From Chlorobium sp. (lineage in GTDB: Bacteria > Bacteroidota > Chlorobiia > Chlorobiales > Chlorobiaceae), in assembly GCA_005843825.1 (NCBI GenBank), contig SZXX01000016.1, positions 1 through 64,000 on the forward strand: a stretch of DNA of 64,000 bases, read 5' to 3'. A program made the translations under genes and the position numbers. Positions 40,996 to 49,210 of the stretch are shown in pieces (position 1 is the stretch's first letter; each line of letters opens with the position of its first letter). The notes beneath the pieces were generated by a model that worked only from the letters and a program-made list of their open reading frames with translations, did not search any database and had not been told where the DNA came from.

Positions 40996-42030
40996 TTGAG
41001 AATAGAACTCCTCAATACGCCACCTGATGCCGTTGAGACCAGGATCGAAGAACAGATTCGACCAATCTCAATGGATGATTTTGCCGGGCAGCAGCGGCTG
41101 ACCGATAATCTGAAAGTTTTTATTTCAGCAGCAAAAATGCGCGGTGATGCACTGGACCATGTCCTCTTATCCGGTCCACCAGGGCTCGGAAAGACGACGC
41201 TTGCCTATATTATTGCATCCGAAATGGGAAGCAGCATCAAGTCAACGTCCGGTCCTTTGCTTGACAAGGCAGGTAATCTCGCAGGACTTCTGACTGGTCT
41301 TCAAAAGGGGGATGTGCTTTTTATTGACGAAATTCACCGTATGCCCCCGGCTGTTGAGGAGTATCTCTATTCAGCCATGGAGGATTTCCGCATTGATATC
41401 ATGCTCGACAGCGGGCCTTCGGCAAGGGCGGTGCAGTTGCGAATCGAACCCTTCACCCTTGTTGGCGCAACGACTCGTTCCGGTCTTCTGACCTCACCAC
41501 TCAGGGCAAGGTTCGGCATTAACAGCCGCTTTGATTACTATGCACCGGATATTCTCGAAGGAATTATAATAAGAGCTTCAGGGATTCTCGGTATAGGAAT
41601 TGATGACGAGGCTGCCTCCGAAATTGCCGGGCGTTCCAGGGGTACCCCCCGCATTGCAAACAGACTGCTTCGGCGTGCCCGGGATTTTGCTCAGGTAGAC
41701 GGTGTAGAGCTTATAACCCGCTCTATTGCCATGAAGACCCTTGAGTGTCTTGAAATTGATGAGGAAGGACTGGATGATATGGATAAAAAAATCATGGACA
41801 CCATTGTCAACAAATTCAGTGGTGGACCAGTCGGGATAGCCTCTCTCGCCGTATCGGTAGGTGAAGAGCGGGATACCATTGAAGAGGTTTACGAGCCTTA
41901 TCTTATCCAGGCAGGTTACCTCACAAGGACAACAAGGGGACGGGTTGCAACGCGTCAGGCATTTTTACGGTTCTCAACCGGAAGTGACAGCAATGAATAC
42001 CCTTTGTTTGATGGACAGCAGGACCGGTAA
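40996..42030 (+). CDS. ruvB: Holliday junction branch migration helicase RuvB
   Basis: AAA+ motor that drives branch migration with RuvA during recombination repair. The 344-residue product has Walker A GPPGLGKTTLA (about 60-70), Walker B VLFIDEIHRM, sensor 1 GATTRSGLL, arginine-finger region SPLRARFG and the C-terminal winged helix (GGPVGIASLAVSVGE to GYLTRTTRGRVAT). The start must be TTG at 40996: a stop lies 21 nt upstream in frame and no ATG exists, while MRIELLNTPPDA fits related RuvB starts. ruvA and ruvC are not nearby. Its 3' end overlaps the TPR gene by 38 nt. Confidence 0.97.
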   Translation: MRIELLNTPPDAVETRIEEQIRPISMDDFAGQQRLTDNLKVFISAAKMRGDALDHVLLSGPPGLGKTTLAYIIASEMGSSIKSTSGPLLDKAGNLAGLLTGLQKGDVLFIDEIHRMPPAVEEYLYSAMEDFRIDIMLDSGPSARAVQLRIEPFTLVGATTRSGLLTSPLRARFGINSRFDYYAPDILEGIIIRASGILGIGIDDEAASEIAGRSRGTPRIANRLLRRARDFAQVDGVELITRSIAMKTLECLEIDEEGLDDMDKKIMDTIVNKFSGGPVGIASLAVSVGEERDTIEEVYEPYLIQAGYLTRTTRGRVATRQAFLRFSTGSDSNEYPLFDGQQDR

Positions 42031-43741
42031 ATTACCAGCACACCGATTTGACCGGTTGAGGCTCATCTTTTTTGTGCTTGGCGGTGCAATGTTCTCAATT
42101 ATTTCCCTTTCATCATGTTCTTCCCGGCCCGTTCTTTCCGGGATGCCCGTTTCCGACTCTCTCTTTGAAGCCTCAAAAAGGGAGTTTGTAGCAGCATCGC
42201 TTTTGAGTGCTAAAGAAGATTATCAGGGTGCCGCTGACGGTTATAAGAAGCTTCTGATACTCCAGCCATCGAATGCAGCGATTCATTATGCGCTCTCAAA
42301 AGCCTACGTTGGTCTTGGCCTTATTGACTCAGCCCGCCAGCATAGCGAAAAAAGTGTTGTGCTTGATTCCGCAAATAAATATTACCTGAGGTTTCTTGCC
42401 GGCCTGTCTCATCAGATGCACGATTACCCCCGGGCCTCCGATCTCTACCGCCAGCTTGTTGCTCTTGAACCTGGCAGTCCTGAACCGCTCACCTATCTGG
42501 CTCTGGCATATCTTGCTGCTGAACAGCCCGAAAAAGCCCTTGCTGTTTTTAACGAACTGCTTGCTTTAGACCCAAAGGATAAAACGCTCCAGGCACAGGT
42601 ATTGCTGATGCAGATAAAACTCCTTCATTATAATGATGCTATAAGTACAGTAATGGATCTGATTGAGAAGGGCAATGGCAAAGAGAAGCTAAGCCTCACT
42701 CTCGGAGAACTCTACATGCAGACAGAGCAGCATGATCTTGCTTCCAGAACATTCAGGGGTGTGATTCAGGAAAATCCCGGATTTATTCCAGCATGGCTAG
42801 CCCTGTTCGAGGTCTCTGTAAAAACAAAAAACCGTCCTGTTTTTCTTGAAGATCTTAACCGCTTTTATGATTCCAATCAGGTAAGTCTCCAGCAGCAGAT
42901 TGATCTTGCCAAACTCTTTATTGTCCGATCAAACAAGGACAGCACCTTTGTTGATCCATCTTTTATCATGATCGAGGCAATCAACAAGCGTCATCCAAAC
43001 AACAGCAAGGTCTATGCGCTTAGAGCTAATGTCAAGCTGTTACATAACCAGGAAGCCGAATCCATACATGATTTTAAAAAGGCACTGACACTCGACTCCG
43101 GCAATATTTCAATATGGGAGGATCTTGTAGCCGCGTATCTCACGCTGAAGGAGAACCGGCAGGCTGAAAAAACGGTTGCCATCATTAAAAAGCGATTTCC
43201 GGTTCGCCCGCTCAGGTTTCGGGCTATGGAAGGTGAAGTCTGTTTTCGAACTGGTAACGTTAAAAAAGCGGCGCTGCTGCTGGAAAAAGTGGTGCAGCCA
43301 AACGTGGCCCATAAGGATAAACAGCTTTATCTCCAGGCTGGCAGCACCCTTGCTGTATGCTATGATAAACTTGGCTTTTCCGATAAAAGCATTCGCCTCT
43401 ATGAGAGCATTCTTGACATTGATGCCGGTAATATTTTTATGATGAACAATCTTGCCTATGTTCTTGCTGAACGAGGGAAAGAACTCTCAAGAGCCAAAGA
43501 ACTCGCGCTGAAGGCCGTTACTGCAGAACCCGAAAATGCCAGCTACCTCGATACGCTTGGCTGGGTACTCTTCAAATTGGCAGAATATGACAAATCGCGA
43601 GAACACCTTGAAAAAGCATCGGCACTTGATACGCGTGAGCCTGAAATACTTGATCACCTTGCCCAGGTATACCAAAAGCTCGGAAACCCTGAGAAGGCGC
43701 AGGAACTGATGGCGAAGATGCAAAAGCTGCAGAAGAAGTAG
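41993..43741 (+). CDS. TPR-repeat lipoprotein
   Basis: 582-residue protein with a hydrophobic segment and lipobox (SIISLSSC, about residues 36-43), so probably attached to an envelope membrane. At least eight tetratricopeptide repeats follow, for example AADGYKKLLILQPSNAAIHYALSKAY, ASDLYRQLVALEPGSPEPL, and three near the C-terminus (SIRLYESILDIDAGN, LDTLGWVLFKLAEYDKS). Such proteins scaffold envelope complexes; no specific partner can be named. ATG 41993 has GGAAG 8 nt upstream and lies inside the end of ruvB, so it is coupled to it. Longer starts would lie deeper inside ruvB. Confidence 0.87.
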   Translation: MNTLCLMDSRTGKLPAHRFDRLRLIFFVLGGAMFSIISLSSCSSRPVLSGMPVSDSLFEASKREFVAASLLSAKEDYQGAADGYKKLLILQPSNAAIHYALSKAYVGLGLIDSARQHSEKSVVLDSANKYYLRFLAGLSHQMHDYPRASDLYRQLVALEPGSPEPLTYLALAYLAAEQPEKALAVFNELLALDPKDKTLQAQVLLMQIKLLHYNDAISTVMDLIEKGNGKEKLSLTLGELYMQTEQHDLASRTFRGVIQENPGFIPAWLALFEVSVKTKNRPVFLEDLNRFYDSNQVSLQQQIDLAKLFIVRSNKDSTFVDPSFIMIEAINKRHPNNSKVYALRANVKLLHNQEAESIHDFKKALTLDSGNISIWEDLVAAYLTLKENRQAEKTVAIIKKRFPVRPLRFRAMEGEVCFRTGNVKKAALLLEKVVQPNVAHKDKQLYLQAGSTLAVCYDKLGFSDKSIRLYESILDIDAGNIFMMNNLAYVLAERGKELSRAKELALKAVTAEPENASYLDTLGWVLFKLAEYDKSREHLEKASALDTREPEILDHLAQVYQKLGNPEKAQELMAKMQKLQKK

Positions 43742-43808
43742 TCTCCACCTGTCTTTCGGAGCCCCTCGACTTTTTTATAACAACTCCTCAACATAAAAGG
43801 GACATACC

Positions 43809-45266
43809 ATGTCAAAAATGTATACAACTCCAGGAGTGTATATCGAAGAAATCAACAAATTCCCACCTTCAATTACAGGAGTAGAAACGGCGGTTCCGGC
43901 ATTCATAGGCTACACCGAAAAGGCCACTCTGACAGATATTGACGATTTACATCTCAAACCCGTCAGGATAGATTCTATGATAGAATATATGCAACATTTC
44001 GGAGGGGCTCAGAAAGAAGAGAACATTAAGGTATCCATCGACGAACAGAAAGATGAGACAGATAAAACCATCTCGCTGAAACAGAGTACCTGTTTTATTG
44101 ACTCAGGTCGATCAAAACATATCATGTATTATGCATTGCAACTGTTTTTCAATAATGGTGGCGGTCCATGCTACATCGTATCGGTGAGTCCGTATGAAAG
44201 TTTGGGAACTGATCTGAACATTGAGAAGTTGAAAGATGGTTTGAAAAAATTAGAAAACAGAGAGGAGCCAACACTCATTATCTTTCCTGAAGCGCAATAT
44301 CTTACGACAATCAACGATTTCCAGGTACTTTACAATTTAGCGCTCGAACAATGTGAAGCATTGAAAAACCGTTTTGTGGTAATGGATGTGTATGGCTGCG
44401 ACGAACAATCACTTTTAAAAAAAGGTGTCACACTGTTGGACACCATCAGAAATTTCAGAGATAATGGTATTGGCAACGACAATCTGAAATATGGGGCAGC
44501 TTATGCGCCCAACATCAATACAACACTGGATTTTGTCGTCGATGAGACAAAAATCAAGGTAAAGTACACTGTAACACCCGCCCCTGTTAACCCTGCTCAG
44601 CCGGGTGTGGTAACCCTTGATTCTTTAAAGATTACTGACAACAATACATACGAAAAGGCAAAAAAGGCACTCAGAGATATGCACTGTCCAATGCCGCCAA
44701 GCGCTGCCATAGCAGGCATTTATGCTTCTGTCGACAAGAGTCGGGGTGTATGGACGGCACCGGCAAACGTGACTCTCAAAGCCGTAATCAAGCCGGTAAC
44801 CGATTGCTCTAAAAATGAACAGGATTTTATGAACATTGATGCGAAAGCTGGCAAATCCGTCAATGCTATCCGTTCATTCATCGGCAAAGGGACTATGGTC
44901 TGGGGTGCTCGCACGCTTGCCGGAAACGATAATGAATGGCGTTATATCAACGTCCGCCGTTTTATCAACTTTGTGGAAGAGTCCACAAAAAAGGGTGCCA
45001 TGCAGTTTGTCTTTGAGCCAAACACTGTCAATACATGGGTGAAGGTTCAGGCCTCGATTGAAAATTTTCTCACAACACTCTGGCGTCAGGGAGCGTTACA
45101 AGGCGATAAATCTGAGCATGCGTTTTATGTGGCTGTTGGATTAGGAAAAACCATGACACCCCTTGATATTGTTGAAGGAAACCTCATTTTAGAAATAGGA
45201 ATGGCCGTTGTCAGACCGGCGGAATTTATCATTCTTCAATTCTCGCAAAAAATGGCAGCATCTTGA
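43809..45266 (+). CDS. Phage tail sheath-like protein (contractile injection system)
   Basis: 485-residue protein of the contractile tail sheath family. It starts MYTTPGVYIEEINKFPPSITG, the classic sheath N-terminus, followed by VETAVPAFIGYTEKA. The conserved C-terminal sheath domain is present: SFIGKGTMVWGARTLAGND, WRYINVRRFINFVEESTKKG, VFEPNTVNTW, LTTLWRQGALQG and a final beta strand (RPAEFIILQFSQK) that in sheaths exchanges with neighbouring subunits. The middle is variable and Lys/Asp-rich. A good ribosome site (AAAGGGA) and its own terminator make it a single-gene unit. No tube, baseplate, spike or ATPase gene lies nearby. Confidence 0.9.
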   Translation: MSKMYTTPGVYIEEINKFPPSITGVETAVPAFIGYTEKATLTDIDDLHLKPVRIDSMIEYMQHFGGAQKEENIKVSIDEQKDETDKTISLKQSTCFIDSGRSKHIMYYALQLFFNNGGGPCYIVSVSPYESLGTDLNIEKLKDGLKKLENREEPTLIIFPEAQYLTTINDFQVLYNLALEQCEALKNRFVVMDVYGCDEQSLLKKGVTLLDTIRNFRDNGIGNDNLKYGAAYAPNINTTLDFVVDETKIKVKYTVTPAPVNPAQPGVVTLDSLKITDNNTYEKAKKALRDMHCPMPPSAAIAGIYASVDKSRGVWTAPANVTLKAVIKPVTDCSKNEQDFMNIDAKAGKSVNAIRSFIGKGTMVWGARTLAGNDNEWRYINVRRFINFVEESTKKGAMQFVFEPNTVNTWVKVQASIENFLTTLWRQGALQGDKSEHAFYVAVGLGKTMTPLDIVEGNLILEIGMAVVRPAEFIILQFSQKMAAS

Positions 45267-45327
45267 TGCCTTAACAATGAATCAGGGCGTGTCATCTCCT
45301 GTTTTCCGGGACAATATTTCAGAAAAG

Positions 45328-45360
45328 AAAAAAGGCGAGGAGATTATCCTCGCCTTTTTT
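45328..45360. terminator. Bidirectional terminator between sheath gene and nifJ
   Basis: Perfect 13-bp inverted repeat (aaaaaaggcgagg / cctcgcctttttt) around a 7-nt loop, with A and T runs on both sides, between converging genes. Confidence 0.94.
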
Positions 45361-45383
45361 TATGTCGATTTCAATGTGAGTCC

Positions 45384-48300
45384 TTATTTCTCATTACCGA
45401 AGGTGGTGCGTGCCGCCAGGTATTCGTAATGAGCCCAGCGTGTATCAACCTCTTTCTGGATGGCCGCATAATACTCATCGGCAAGAGCGGGATGGCTCTT
45501 TTTGAGCATTCTGAAGCGGTTTTCCATATTGAGGAAATTTGCAACCGGAATTTTAGGCTTTTTCGAATCGAGAATAAGCGGATTCTTTCCTTCCAGCAAG
45601 CGGGCAGGATTGTAGCGGTAGAGTATCCAGTGTCCGGAATCCACTGCAGCTTTCTGATTCTCAAGTGCGGTTGACATATTGATGCCGTGAGCAATACAGT
45701 GAGAATAGGCTATGATGATCGACGGGCCATCATAAGCTTCGGCTTCGAGGAATGCTTTCAATGTCTGTTCGTCACGGGCTCCCAAGGCAACAGAGGCAAC
45801 GTAGGCAGTTCCGTAGGACATTGAGATCATACCGAGATCCTTTTTGGTCGCTGTACGTCCTGCAGCTGCAAATTTAGCCACAGCGGCTTTCGGTGTCGCT
45901 TTTGATGCCTGTCCACCAGTATTGGAATAAACCTCGGTATCGAGAACAAGCAGGTTGATATTTTTGTTTCCTGCAGTAATATGGTCAACACCGCCGTAGC
46001 CGATGTCATAAGCCCAGCCATCACCACCGACGCCCCATACGCTCTTTTTTACAAGCATATCAGCCACGGAGAGAAGATTTCTTGCATCGGCAGAATCGAT
46101 TGTACGAAGCTTATCTTTCAGGATGGCCACCCTTGTTCTCTGTTCAAAGATTTCAGGTTCGCTGAGCTCTCGCGCCTCAAGTATCTCTCGAGTAAGCGTG
46201 TCTCCGATTTCAGCAGAAACTCTTTTCAACAGTTCGCGTGCATATTCCCGCTGTTTGTCAATGGAGATTCTGAAACCAAGGGCAAATTCTGCTGTATCTT
46301 CAAAAAGTGAGTTTGACCACGTTGGCCCGCGACCATCTGAATTGGTGGTATAAGGAGTTGTCGGGAGGTTTCCGCCGTAGATCGATGAACAACCGGTGGC
46401 ATTGCCGACAACAAGACGGTCGCCGAAGAGCTGCGTCATGAGTTTGACATACGGAGTTTCGCCGCAGCCGGAACATGCTCCTGAAAACTCAAACAGGGGA
46501 ACCTGAAGCTGCTGTTCCTTGATCAGCTTGGTATTGATTTTGTTCCGGTCAAATTCCGGAATGTTTAGAAAGAAGTTCCAGTTGTCAACCTCTGTTTCAC
46601 GAAGTGGTTTTTGCAACTTCATATTCAAAGCTTTTCTTTCCGGGTTGGTTTTATCCCTTCCAGGACAGACATGCGCACAGAGTTCGCATCCGGTACAGTC
46701 CTCTGGAGCTACCTGGATGGTGTACTTCATCCCTTCCCAGCTTGCGCCCTTTGCTTCAGTGGATTTGAAGGTGCGTGGTGCGTTTGCAAGGTATTTAGCA
46801 TCATAGACCTTCGCCCGGATTACGGCATGAGGACAAACCATGGAGCATTTAGCGCACTGTATGCATAGATCGGGTTCCCAGACCGGAATTTCGTCGGCAA
46901 GGTTACGTTTTTCAAATTTTGAGGTTCCAGTCGGGTAGGTCCCGTCAGCTGGCATATCGCTGACTGGAATATCGTCGCCATCACCGGAAATTACTTTTGC
47001 AAGAACGTTACAGACAAAGTCGGATGCCTCGCCGCTAATAGGCTGACGGAGTGTTTTTTTGCTGTCAGCAATGGAGCCGATGGTGACCTGATGCAGGTTG
47101 GAGAGTGTATTATCTACAGCCTGAATATTCTGTTTGACTACCTCATCTCCCTTTTTGCCATAGGTCTGTCGAATGGAGTTCTTGATTTGTTCAATGGCCT
47201 CTTCACGTGGCAGTACACCTGATATGGCAAAAAAGCATGCCTGCATAATCGTGTTGATGCGCTGACCCATTCCGCTGTTATGAGCTACTGGATAGGCATC
47301 AATAGTGTAGAGCTTAGCCTCTTTCTGAATCAGATGTTCCTGAACAACTTTCGGCAGTTTATCCCAGAGTTCATCCGGAGCATAAGGAGAGTTAAGAAGT
47401 AGCGTTCCTCCTTTCTTGAGATTTTTCACGAGATCGATCATCTCAAGGAAAATCCAGTGGTGGCAGCCGATAAACTGAGCCTGTGTGATCAGATAGGTTG
47501 AACGAATCTCATGCGGTCCGAAACGCAGGTGAGACATGGTAATTGACCCGGCTTTTTTGGAGTCGTATACAAAATAGCCCTGGGCAAAGTTTTCGGTGTT
47601 TTCACCGATAATCTTGATGCTGTTCTTATTGGCTCCGACTGTTCCGTCTGAACCAAGGCCGTAAAAGAGAGCCCTGAACATCTCGTCAGGTTCTATAGAG
47701 AACGTACGGTCATAATCGAGGCTTGTATGGGTAACATCGTCATTGATGCCGATTGTAAAATGGTTTTTCGGTTTCCCCAGTGCCATGTTGTCATAGACAG
47801 CCTTGATCATTGCAGGGGTAAACTCCTTTGATGAAAGACCATATCTGCCGCCGGTAATGCCTGGCATGGTTTTCAGCAGTCCATTCTGCAGGCCTTCAAG
47901 AAGGGCATTGACTATATCGAGATAGAGTGGTTCTCCTGCACTTCCTGGTTCCTTGATACGGTCAAGAATGGAAACGGATTTTACAGTTGGCGGCAGTGCA
48001 GCAATAAAGCGTTCAATATCAAACGGGCGGAACATGCGCGCATGGATGACGCCGACTTTTTCACCCTGTTTGTTAAGATATTCAGCCGTTTCACGGGCGG
48101 CCTCAACTCCGGATCCCATCAGCACAATAACCCTGTCAGCATCCGCTGCACCGTAGTACTGGTAAAGTTTATAGTACCGTCCGGTCAGCTCGCCGAATTT
48201 ATCCATCAATCGTTGAGTGATTTCGGGGCAGGCATTGTAATAGCTGTTGACGGTTTCCCGTCCCTGAAAATAGACGTCAGGATTCTGCGATGTTCCGCGA

Positions 48301-48944
48301 ATAATGGGAGCATCAGGGCTCATGCGGCGGTTGCGATGCGCGATGACAAGCTCATCGGGTACCATTGCTTTTATAACATCATCAGAAACAACCTCAATTT
48401 TAGCAATCTCATGAGAGGTTCTGAATCCGTCGAAGAAGTGAAGAAATGGTATTCTTGATTCAAGTGTTGCCGCAGCTGAAATAAGGCCAAGATCCATCAC
48501 TTCCTGAACAGAACTGGATGCCAGAAGTGCAAAGCCTGTTCCTCGAACCGACATGACATCACCATGGTCACCAAATATTGAAAGTGCCTGTCCCGCCAGT
48601 GCGCGGGCTGAAACGTGTATGACGCATGGAGTCAGCTCACCGGCAATTTTATACATATTCGGAATCATCAGCAACAGACCCTGTGATGCGGTAAACGTGG
48701 TTGTCAACGCACCGGTCTGCAACGCACCGTGAACTGCGGCTGCAGCTCCGGCCTCGCTCTGTAATTCATCAATCTTGGGAACTGTTCCCCAAATATTTTT
48801 TTTCCCTTCAGCAGCCCATGCATCGGAATATTCACCCATCGGCGAAGCCGGAGTAATCGGGTAGATACAGATAACTTCGCTTGTACGATAAGAGACATGA
48901 GCCAAGGCTTCATTTCCCTCCATTGTTTTAAAGATCCGGGTCAT
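45384..48944 (-). CDS. nifJ: Pyruvate:ferredoxin (flavodoxin) oxidoreductase
   Basis: Single-chain enzyme that reversibly converts pyruvate and CoA to acetyl-CoA, CO2 and reduced ferredoxin; in green sulfur bacteria it works as pyruvate synthase for CO2 fixation. The 1186-residue product has the alpha domain (SEVICIYPITPASPMGE), the gamma domain, two 4Fe-4S clusters (CIQCAKCSMVCP and CTGCELCAHVCP), and the TPP domain with a further cluster (CSGCGETPY, GDGWAYDIGYGGVDH). ATG 48944 gives the family start MTRIFKTMEGNEA; the longer frame to 49010 is not conserved. It is transcribed alone. Confidence 0.97.
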   Translation of the reverse strand: MTRIFKTMEGNEALAHVSYRTSEVICIYPITPASPMGEYSDAWAAEGKKNIWGTVPKIDELQSEAGAAAAVHGALQTGALTTTFTASQGLLLMIPNMYKIAGELTPCVIHVSARALAGQALSIFGDHGDVMSVRGTGFALLASSSVQEVMDLGLISAAATLESRIPFLHFFDGFRTSHEIAKIEVVSDDVIKAMVPDELVIAHRNRRMSPDAPIIRGTSQNPDVYFQGRETVNSYYNACPEITQRLMDKFGELTGRYYKLYQYYGAADADRVIVLMGSGVEAARETAEYLNKQGEKVGVIHARMFRPFDIERFIAALPPTVKSVSILDRIKEPGSAGEPLYLDIVNALLEGLQNGLLKTMPGITGGRYGLSSKEFTPAMIKAVYDNMALGKPKNHFTIGINDDVTHTSLDYDRTFSIEPDEMFRALFYGLGSDGTVGANKNSIKIIGENTENFAQGYFVYDSKKAGSITMSHLRFGPHEIRSTYLITQAQFIGCHHWIFLEMIDLVKNLKKGGTLLLNSPYAPDELWDKLPKVVQEHLIQKEAKLYTIDAYPVAHNSGMGQRINTIMQACFFAISGVLPREEAIEQIKNSIRQTYGKKGDEVVKQNIQAVDNTLSNLHQVTIGSIADSKKTLRQPISGEASDFVCNVLAKVISGDGDDIPVSDMPADGTYPTGTSKFEKRNLADEIPVWEPDLCIQCAKCSMVCPHAVIRAKVYDAKYLANAPRTFKSTEAKGASWEGMKYTIQVAPEDCTGCELCAHVCPGRDKTNPERKALNMKLQKPLRETEVDNWNFFLNIPEFDRNKINTKLIKEQQLQVPLFEFSGACSGCGETPYVKLMTQLFGDRLVVGNATGCSSIYGGNLPTTPYTTNSDGRGPTWSNSLFEDTAEFALGFRISIDKQREYARELLKRVSAEIGDTLTREILEARELSEPEIFEQRTRVAILKDKLRTIDSADARNLLSVADMLVKKSVWGVGGDGWAYDIGYGGVDHITAGNKNINLLVLDTEVYSNTGGQASKATPKAAVAKFAAAGRTATKKDLGMISMSYGTAYVASVALGARDEQTLKAFLEAEAYDGPSIIIAYSHCIAHGINMSTALENQKAAVDSGHWILYRYNPARLLEGKNPLILDSKKPKIPVANFLNMENRFRMLKKSHPALADEYYAAIQKEVDTRWAHYEYLAARTTFGNEK

Positions 48945-49210
48945 ACTGGCAGTCCCACTTGATTTGTATTGATGAATTAGATTCGTGCAGAGCACTGAAG
49001 TGAATACCACGACGGAAATAAAATAATCGTAGCATGCGTAATCAAATCGAGGCGACCAGAAAGATATTAAAAAAAATGATTTTTGATAAATTTAATTAGA
49101 TTTCGGCATTGCTTTAGAAGAGTCAGCAGACAGGCCGTATTTCAAGCCCTGTTGCAACTCTATTCTTTGCTTATCGTTAACATTCAGATCAGAAAAGGAA
49201 AAGAGGTTTT

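What the first reader, a model, noticed from the sequence alone, without database searches (positions are those of the whole stretch)
43809..45266. Solitary contractile tail sheath gene
A full-length sheath protein with the conserved C-terminal domain stands as a single-gene unit with its own ribosome site and strong terminator, between a TPR lipoprotein and nifJ. Tube, baseplate, spike and AAA+ ATPase genes are absent around it. It may belong to an extracellular injection system encoded in pieces, or be a domesticated sheath with a new structural role.
Basis: partly seen in the sequence, partly recalled or inferred. Interest (0 to 1): 0.55.

Follow-up and report, generated by a model that had tools for sequence, protein, structure and literature searches.

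The report
Lone injection-sheath gene without its machine
This bacterium carries one intact gene for the contractile outer sheath of a syringe-like protein machine but none of the other main parts that were searched for, and the same oddity recurs in distant relatives, in one case at the same chromosomal place in two sister species, which suggests that a sheath can be kept for some other use.

Summary
Window 43809-45266 encodes an intact 485-aa contractile injection system (CIS) sheath. Closest in the PDB: the Anabaena thylakoid-CIS sheath (E 3.5e-142); closest in genomes: a Brocadia CIS sheath (65%). Tube, spike, baseplate and gp25 profiles find nothing in this 98%-complete genome while control genomes ring, so a CIS 'encoded in pieces' is unlikely.

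The gene lies between a TPR gene and nifJ, which are adjacent in 11 of 16 relatives printed: it was gained, and by the tree not from the chlorobial-type CISs. Its 'own' terminator is the old TPR/nifJ one.

Solitary sheaths recur. Of 392 genomes of the phylum, 85 have such a sheath, 9 of these no tube, and no other CIS gene was seen beside any of the nine. With Hymenobacter norwichensis there are ten, from at least 4, probably 6, changes on the tree. Two congeners keep a solitary sheath at one syntenic site with dS saturated and dN 0.31: selection.

Best reading: a stand-alone, polymerisation-competent sheath, perhaps forming tube-less polysheaths. For the window copy alone a young relic is not excluded.

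The parts
43809..45266 (+). Solitary CIS-type contractile sheath gene, 485 aa, intact frame
43742..43808 (+). 67-bp gap between the TPR gene and the sheath; AAAAGGG ends 7 bases before ATG (plausible ribosome site)
   Evidence: sequence; not tested
45328..45360 (.). Terminator hairpin of the ancestral TPR/nifJ convergent junction, now downstream of the sheath
   Evidence: 14-pair stem; same place beside nifJ in relatives without the sheath
41861..43741 (+). Flanking TPR protein (ORF start overlaps ruvB; the true start probably lies further in)
   Evidence: relatives
45384..49010 (-). Flanking pyruvate:ferredoxin oxidoreductase (nifJ), convergent with the sheath
   Evidence: adjacency in relatives

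Best explanation
A complete sheath gene of a contractile injection system came in alone, by the tree from outside the chlorobial-type CIS lineages, and settled between a TPR gene and nifJ. It belongs to a recurrent class of solitary sheaths that evolve faster than CIS sheaths but keep most of the sheath core and the N- and C-terminal arms that join subunits in known systems. I infer that the product polymerises by itself into tube-less, contracted-type polysheath tubes or rings and serves as a stand-alone structure in the cell. Shown: homology and fold; no tube, spike, baseplate or gp25 found in the genome; recurrence; purifying selection on one orthologous pair elsewhere. Inferred: polymerisation, cytoplasmic location, and any function in the window organism.
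For: Full-length homology and fold. Absence of tube, spike, baseplate and gp25 with working controls. Empty site in 11 of 16 relatives printed. Placement with Brocadia, Nitrospira and Geomonas sheaths (13-row clade 100/100). Nine of 85 sheath-bearing genomes among 392 lack a tube, and no other CIS gene was seen beside any of the nine; baseplate not found in the six new genomes. G157 and G183 hold sister solitary sheaths at a syntenic site, 61% identical, dN 0.313 with dS saturated. Changes in the window copy avoid columns conserved in CIS sheaths (4 of 101 against 28 of 138 sister-invariant columns, p 1.8e-4) and spare all 28 invariant Gly and Trp. P8, Y11, E14 in the N arm and P470, E472, F473 in the C arm are kept in all ten solitary sheaths. 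Phage sheaths self-assemble without tube or baseplate (PMC6357053, PMC6088184; passages read).
Against: The window copy changed 32 of 239 sister-invariant columns (13%) against 2-7% for each sister and has the longest branch of its near kin (0.48 against 0.055-0.19), as relaxed constraint would give. The other nine solitary sheaths have lost 5-21 of 112 CIS-conserved columns, CIS sheaths at most 6. Neutral drift leaves no stop in 25% of runs at 5% amino-acid change and 6% at 10%. H. norwichensis has a truncated CIS-like ATPase next to its sheath, so that case looks like decay. No gene is shared by the solitary loci. The diffocin sheath does not self-assemble (PMC6088184, passage). If G157 and G183 lost a CIS independently, part of their selection would be older than solitude.
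Confidence: 0.5

Rival explanations
1. Young relic or passenger: the gene came by horizontal transfer, or is the last survivor of a transferred cluster, has no function, and has not yet been broken.
For: Recent gain (four relatives with 89-91% identical TPR proteins lack it). Faster change than its sisters. P(no stop) is still 0.25 at 5% and 0.06 at 10% neutral change. A decayed neighbour in H. norwichensis.
Against: Intact frame; changes avoid the conserved core, are milder than random (p 0.043) and spare Gly and Trp. No trace of other CIS genes around it. Solitary sheaths elsewhere are under selection.
Confidence: 0.35
2. Interference or co-option: the solitary sheath co-assembles with, and poisons or serves, contractile tails made in the cell by invading phages or acquired CISs.
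For: Assembly arms and the two domain-I helices are kept. Scattered distribution and repeated gain would fit a defence or satellite gene.
Against: No phage sheath in the phage collection covers 80% of the protein; the matches listed are 23-31% identical. No defence genes or mobile elements were recognised beside it. Nothing tests co-assembly.
Confidence: 0.08
3. The rest of a CIS is encoded elsewhere in the genome, in pieces or in an assembly gap.
For: 57 contigs, 97.95% complete. Some bacteria are known to scatter CIS genes (recalled, not checked here).
Against: Four profiles miss in G000 and ring in control genomes. Several kinds of part would all have to fall into the missing 2%. The same lack appears in well-assembled genomes (G295 in 2 contigs, G299 in 7; tube and baseplate tested).
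Confidence: 0.05

Closest known systems
Thylakoid-anchored CIS of Anabaena, sheath Cis2/All3325 (PDB 7b5h; PMC8894136, passages read)
   Same: Full-length homologue (E 3.5e-142) and best fold match (Foldseek E 1.8e-52, TM 0.70)
   Different: There 23 sheath layers surround a tube on a baseplate, from one gene cluster (PMC8894136 passages); here no tube, spike, baseplate or gp25 was found in the genome
AlgoCIS sheath Alg2 (PDB 7adz/7ae0; PMC8894135, passages read)
   Same: Same sheath core, handshake arms and attachment-helix domain by homology
   Different: Alg2 is longer (692 aa) with a further domain, and is part of a complete CIS
CIS sheaths of Brocadia, Nitrospira, Geomonas, Thiothrix and a Pararhizobium plasmid (L089, L090, L091, L160, L086)
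   Same: Closest sequences, 59-65% identical over the full length
   Different: Each lies beside at least two other CIS genes and changes more slowly
Polysheaths of phage sheath proteins (gp053 of FV3; T4 gp18, phiKZ) (PMC6357053, PMC6088184; passages read)
   Same: Precedent that a sheath protein alone can form stable tubes
   Different: Seen with recombinant or mutant phage proteins; assembly of the present protein is untested

Membership tests
CIS-type contractile sheath protein (Cis2/Alg2 family) | Full-length sequence homology to CIS sheaths | tested here: met
   phmmer to All3325 over residues 3-483, E 3.5e-142; 65% identity to a Brocadia CIS sheath
CIS-type contractile sheath protein (Cis2/Alg2 family) | Pfam Phage_sheath_1C and Phage_sheath_1 domains | tested here: inconclusive
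   PF17482 50.6 bits, above its cut-off of 26.9; PF04984 28.9 bits, below its cut-off of 31.4
CIS-type contractile sheath protein (Cis2/Alg2 family) | Sheath fold | tested here: met
   AF2 pLDDT 81.6; best match 7b5h, Foldseek E 1.8e-52, TM 0.70, rmsd 11.9 over the whole chain, so the domain arrangement is unsure
CIS-type contractile sheath protein (Cis2/Alg2 family) | N- and C-terminal arms for the handshake between subunits | tested here: met
   By sequence only: conserved arm residues kept
CIS-type contractile sheath protein (Cis2/Alg2 family) | Assembles into a contractile sheath around a tube | not testable with these tools
   No tube gene found in the genome; assembly needs experiment
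Contractile injection system (whole machine) | Inner tube gene | tested here: not met
   Profile A1: no match in G000; 3 of 3 controls ring
Contractile injection system (whole machine) | Spike and baseplate genes | tested here: not met
   Profiles A2 (spike), A4 (large baseplate protein), A3 (gp25): no match in G000; controls ring
Contractile injection system (whole machine) | Cap protein and AAA+ ATPase | not tested
   Not searched genome-wide; none seen in the window by tblastn with CIS-locus ORFs
Prophage remnant | Other phage genes nearby; close phage homologues | tested here: not met
   Flanks are a TPR gene, ruvB and nifJ; in 50,697 phage records no place covers 80% of the protein. Not every ORF of the window was tested for phage families
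Pseudogene or relic | Broken frame or loss of conserved residues | tested here: inconclusive
   Frame intact; 2 of 112 CIS-conserved columns lost; but 32 of 239 sister-invariant columns changed
Recurrent solitary sheaths (as defined here) | CIS-type sheath in a genome without CIS tube, with no other CIS gene beside it | tested here: met
   One of 9 such genomes among the 85 sheath-bearing of 392

The most novel reading that the evidence does not exclude
Bacteria repeatedly domesticate single polymer proteins of contractile injection systems: sheaths without a tube and, in other genomes, tubes without a sheath are kept by selection as stand-alone self-assembling structures, and the window gene is a recent case of the sheath kind.
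Probability: 0.3. Interest if true: 0.8.

Novelty: new variant of a known kind. Interest (0 to 1): 0.6.

Why it matters
A sheath is normally thought to be useful only around a tube on a baseplate. A class of solitary sheaths, one pair of which was held by purifying selection at a fixed locus, would mean that a sheath can earn its keep alone. This is directly testable: do these proteins form tubes in cells, and what changes when they are removed? The tubes found without sheaths make the pattern wider. It also warns surveys that take a sheath hit for a CIS: 9 of 85 sheath-bearing genomes here have no tube. On print: six searches of an open-access library (lists capped at 8-15 rows, subscription journals mostly not held) listed no paper that by title or opening abstract is about solitary or orphan CIS sheaths. 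The phrase search returned two botany papers. This is weak evidence of novelty.

Tried and rejected
CIS encoded in pieces: set aside after genome-wide profile searches. Descent from the chlorobial-type CIS sheaths: the C-terminal part is up to 73% identical to their long sheaths, but over the full length the protein groups with Brocadia, Nitrospira, Geomonas and others. Phage origin: only partial matches. A shared partner gene beside solitary sheaths: none found; a TPR gene is upstream in 2 of 10 (window, L178). Loss of tube contacts: the charge of two domain-I helices in solitary sheaths (2 to 5, and 0 to 2) is near that of CIS sheaths (means 2.3 and 1.8), but I could not say for certain which helix is the attachment helix. 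Viral contigs: one scan, one match of 22 residues at a contig edge, not followed. PF06841 in the own genome rang in no control, so I used a home-made tube profile. dN/dS on the window gene itself: no close orthologue in hand. NCBIfam has no model for these sheaths.

Limits. The tree holds a hand-picked 53 rows, so the number of origins may change with sampling. The ORF caller in my scripts is greedy and misses genes in G+C-rich loci (for example the sheath of L098), so absence beside a sheath was trusted only with genome searches or named ordinary neighbours. For the six new genomes only tube and baseplate were searched genome-wide. Biopython's dS could not be computed for the G157/G183 sheath (NG86 saturated, YN00 failed).

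Full report
What is there. ORF 43809-45266 (+) encodes 485 aa. It carries the sheath C-terminal domain above its Pfam cut-off and the subtilisin-like sheath domain just below, matches PHROG tail-sheath families, and aligns end to end with the Anabaena CIS sheath All3325 (E 3.5e-142) and in two pieces with the 692-aa AlgoCIS sheath. An AF2 model (pLDDT 81.6, pTM 0.79) finds 7b5h first (Foldseek E 1.8e-52, TM 0.70, rmsd 11.9). Its first 20 residues are of low confidence, as expected for an arm that binds a neighbouring subunit in assembled sheaths (handshake described in PMC8894135, passages read).

Is the rest of a machine present? The genome has 2.55 Mb in 57 contigs and is 97.95% complete. 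One sheath was found. Profiles built from CIS proteins of related genomes for tube (A1), spike (A2), large baseplate protein (A4) and gp25 (A3) give no match in G000, nor in G019 and G011. Controls rang: G037, G016 and G068 for the first three, G037 and the Brocadia genome for gp25. tblastn with all ORFs called in seven CIS loci against the window and the next 6 kb found only the sheath, ORFs overlapping it on the other strand, and one rRNA-methyltransferase paralogue.

How it got there. TPR gene and nifJ lie next to each other in 11 of the 16 relatives printed (L057-L072; gaps of about 80-120 bases; 13 further loci were not printed), with a hairpin between them in those read. In the window 1.6 kb with the sheath lies inside that junction, and the hairpin 45328-45360 keeps its place beside nifJ. 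In 5 of the 16 nifJ was not found next door; in two of these (L057, L058) the frame downstream reads as a different membrane protein. Four near relatives, 89-91% identical in the TPR segment used, lack the sheath. So it was gained in this lineage. Its codon usage fits the window's larger ORFs rather poorly (6th worst of 40), a weak sign.

From where. The nearest relatives are Brocadia 65%, Nitrospira 62%, an uncultured Bacteroidales 62%, Thiothrix 60%, a Pseudomonadota MAG 60%, Geomonas 59% (best 80 of at least 573 kept) and a Pararhizobium plasmid 58.6%, against 42-49% for the short sheaths of the window's own order. On a 53-row IQ-TREE the gene lies in a 13-row clade (100/100) as sister of the Brocadia sheath (88/96), with an end branch of 0.48 against 0.055-0.19 for its near sisters. 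The 11 non-solitary members of that clade each lie beside at least two other CIS genes.

Solitary sheaths recur. In the order (98 genomes, 37 with some sheath match), G019 and G011 also carry solitary full-length sheaths. In 392 genomes of the phylum, at least 90% complete, 85 have a CIS-type sheath (E up to 1e-30) and 86 a CIS tube (E up to 1e-6): 76 have both, 9 a sheath only, 10 a tube only (lists compared). The nine are G000, G011, G019, G157, G181, G183, G295, G299 and G350. All nine loci were read and no tube, spike, gp25, baseplate or cap was detected within about 6-10 kb. The six new genomes also lack the large baseplate protein, while three control genomes have it. Among the 83 loci, Hymenobacter norwichensis (L095) is a tenth case: no tube or baseplate in its 6-Mb genome and one weak gp25-like match (E 3.9e-7). 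Two short loci of that set (L134, L161; under 5 kb) could not be judged. On the tree the ten need 6 changes, at least 4 by well-supported branches; L177, L179, L180 and L182, from three families, form a clade (100/99), L178 and L181 another (100/97). Sampling was by hand, so CIS members may yet fall into these clades.

Are they under selection? G157 and G183 (one genus; a third member, G245, has sheath and tube genes) hold sister solitary sheaths at one site. The neighbourhood shares an aldose epimerase (83%), a glycosyl hydrolase family 3 protein (75%) and a 455-aa protein (57%), though the genes next to the sheath differ. The sheaths are 61% identical; dN is 0.313, within the range of the three flanking genes (0.125-0.368), and dS is saturated. 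Neutral drift to saturated dS would have erased the similarity, so selection has acted; I read this as selection on a solitary gene because the common ancestor at this site was most simply solitary too. For the window gene the case is weaker. It changed 32 of 239 columns invariant in seven sisters, against 4-19 of 243-258 for each sister tested in the same way. These changes avoid columns conserved in CIS sheaths (4 of 101 against 28 of 138, p 1.8e-4), spare all 28 invariant Gly and Trp, and are milder than random changes (p 0.043). Simulated neutral drift leaves no stop in 25% of runs at 5% amino-acid change, 6% at 10%, 1.5% at 15% and 0 of 400 at 30%. So most of its divergence arose under constraint, but part may predate the transfer, and a short neutral phase now is not excluded. 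L040 shows the same contrast more strongly (6 of 113 against 78 of 221, p 1.3e-10), L095 likewise (5 of 99 against 24 of 123, p 0.0013). Against this, the nine other solitary sheaths have lost 5-21 of 112 CIS-conserved columns (window 2; CIS sheaths median 1, at most 6): they are drifting away from the CIS norm, by relaxed constraint or by a new role.

Mechanism. All ten keep P8, Y11 and E14 of the N-terminal arm and P470, E472 and F473 of the C-terminal arm; two helices of the tube-side domain keep about their charge. Several phage sheath proteins form stable polysheaths without tube or baseplate (PMC6357053, PMC6088184; passages read), though the diffocin sheath did not. I therefore propose self-assembly into tube-less tubes or rings. 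What these do is open; the genes next to solitary sheaths are ordinary and differ from locus to locus.

A wider pattern. Of the 10 genomes with a tube but no sheath, five loci were read; in each the tube is the only CIS gene seen within about 6-9 kb. Two of the five (L185, L186) are near-identical regions. So lone tubes exist too.

Verdict. The window copy may still be a young relic.

Noticed in passing
L184:8847-9284, L185:8692-9138, L186:8933-9379, L187:8351-8782, L188:8874-9356: CIS tube genes (PF06841 in L185) in genomes without a CIS sheath; five of ten such loci read, each without another detected CIS gene; ordinary neighbours (GyrI-like, Rce1-like, radical SAM, MFS and others).
   Followed up: partly
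L095:11509-13046 (Hymenobacter norwichensis DSM 15439): Next to the solitary sheath lie a 298-aa protein without Pfam match and a CIS-like AAA ATPase (52% to that of L116) that ends right after its AAA domain, so this locus looks like a decayed CIS.
   Followed up: partly
L032-L036: CIS loci of the window's relatives with two sheath genes in tandem, one of about 490-504 aa and one of about 665 aa.
   Followed up: no
L032:9-2903 and L039:6513-9473: The same ArsA ATPase plus 357-aa gene pair (78% and 91% identical) lies upstream of a full CIS in G007 and upstream of the solitary sheath in G019, although the sheaths are only 46-47% identical: perhaps an insertion hotspot.
   Followed up: partly
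window 43742-45383; L057, L058, L064, L065: The TPR/nifJ junction holds different genes in several relatives, so it may be a site that often takes up DNA.
   Followed up: partly
L178:10598-11548: A TPR gene ends 12 bases before the solitary sheath of G181 on the same strand, as a TPR gene also precedes the sheath in the window; two of ten, perhaps chance.
   Followed up: no
L183:8001-8069: A viral contig (IMG/VR) with a 22-residue match to the sheath at its edge.
   Followed up: no
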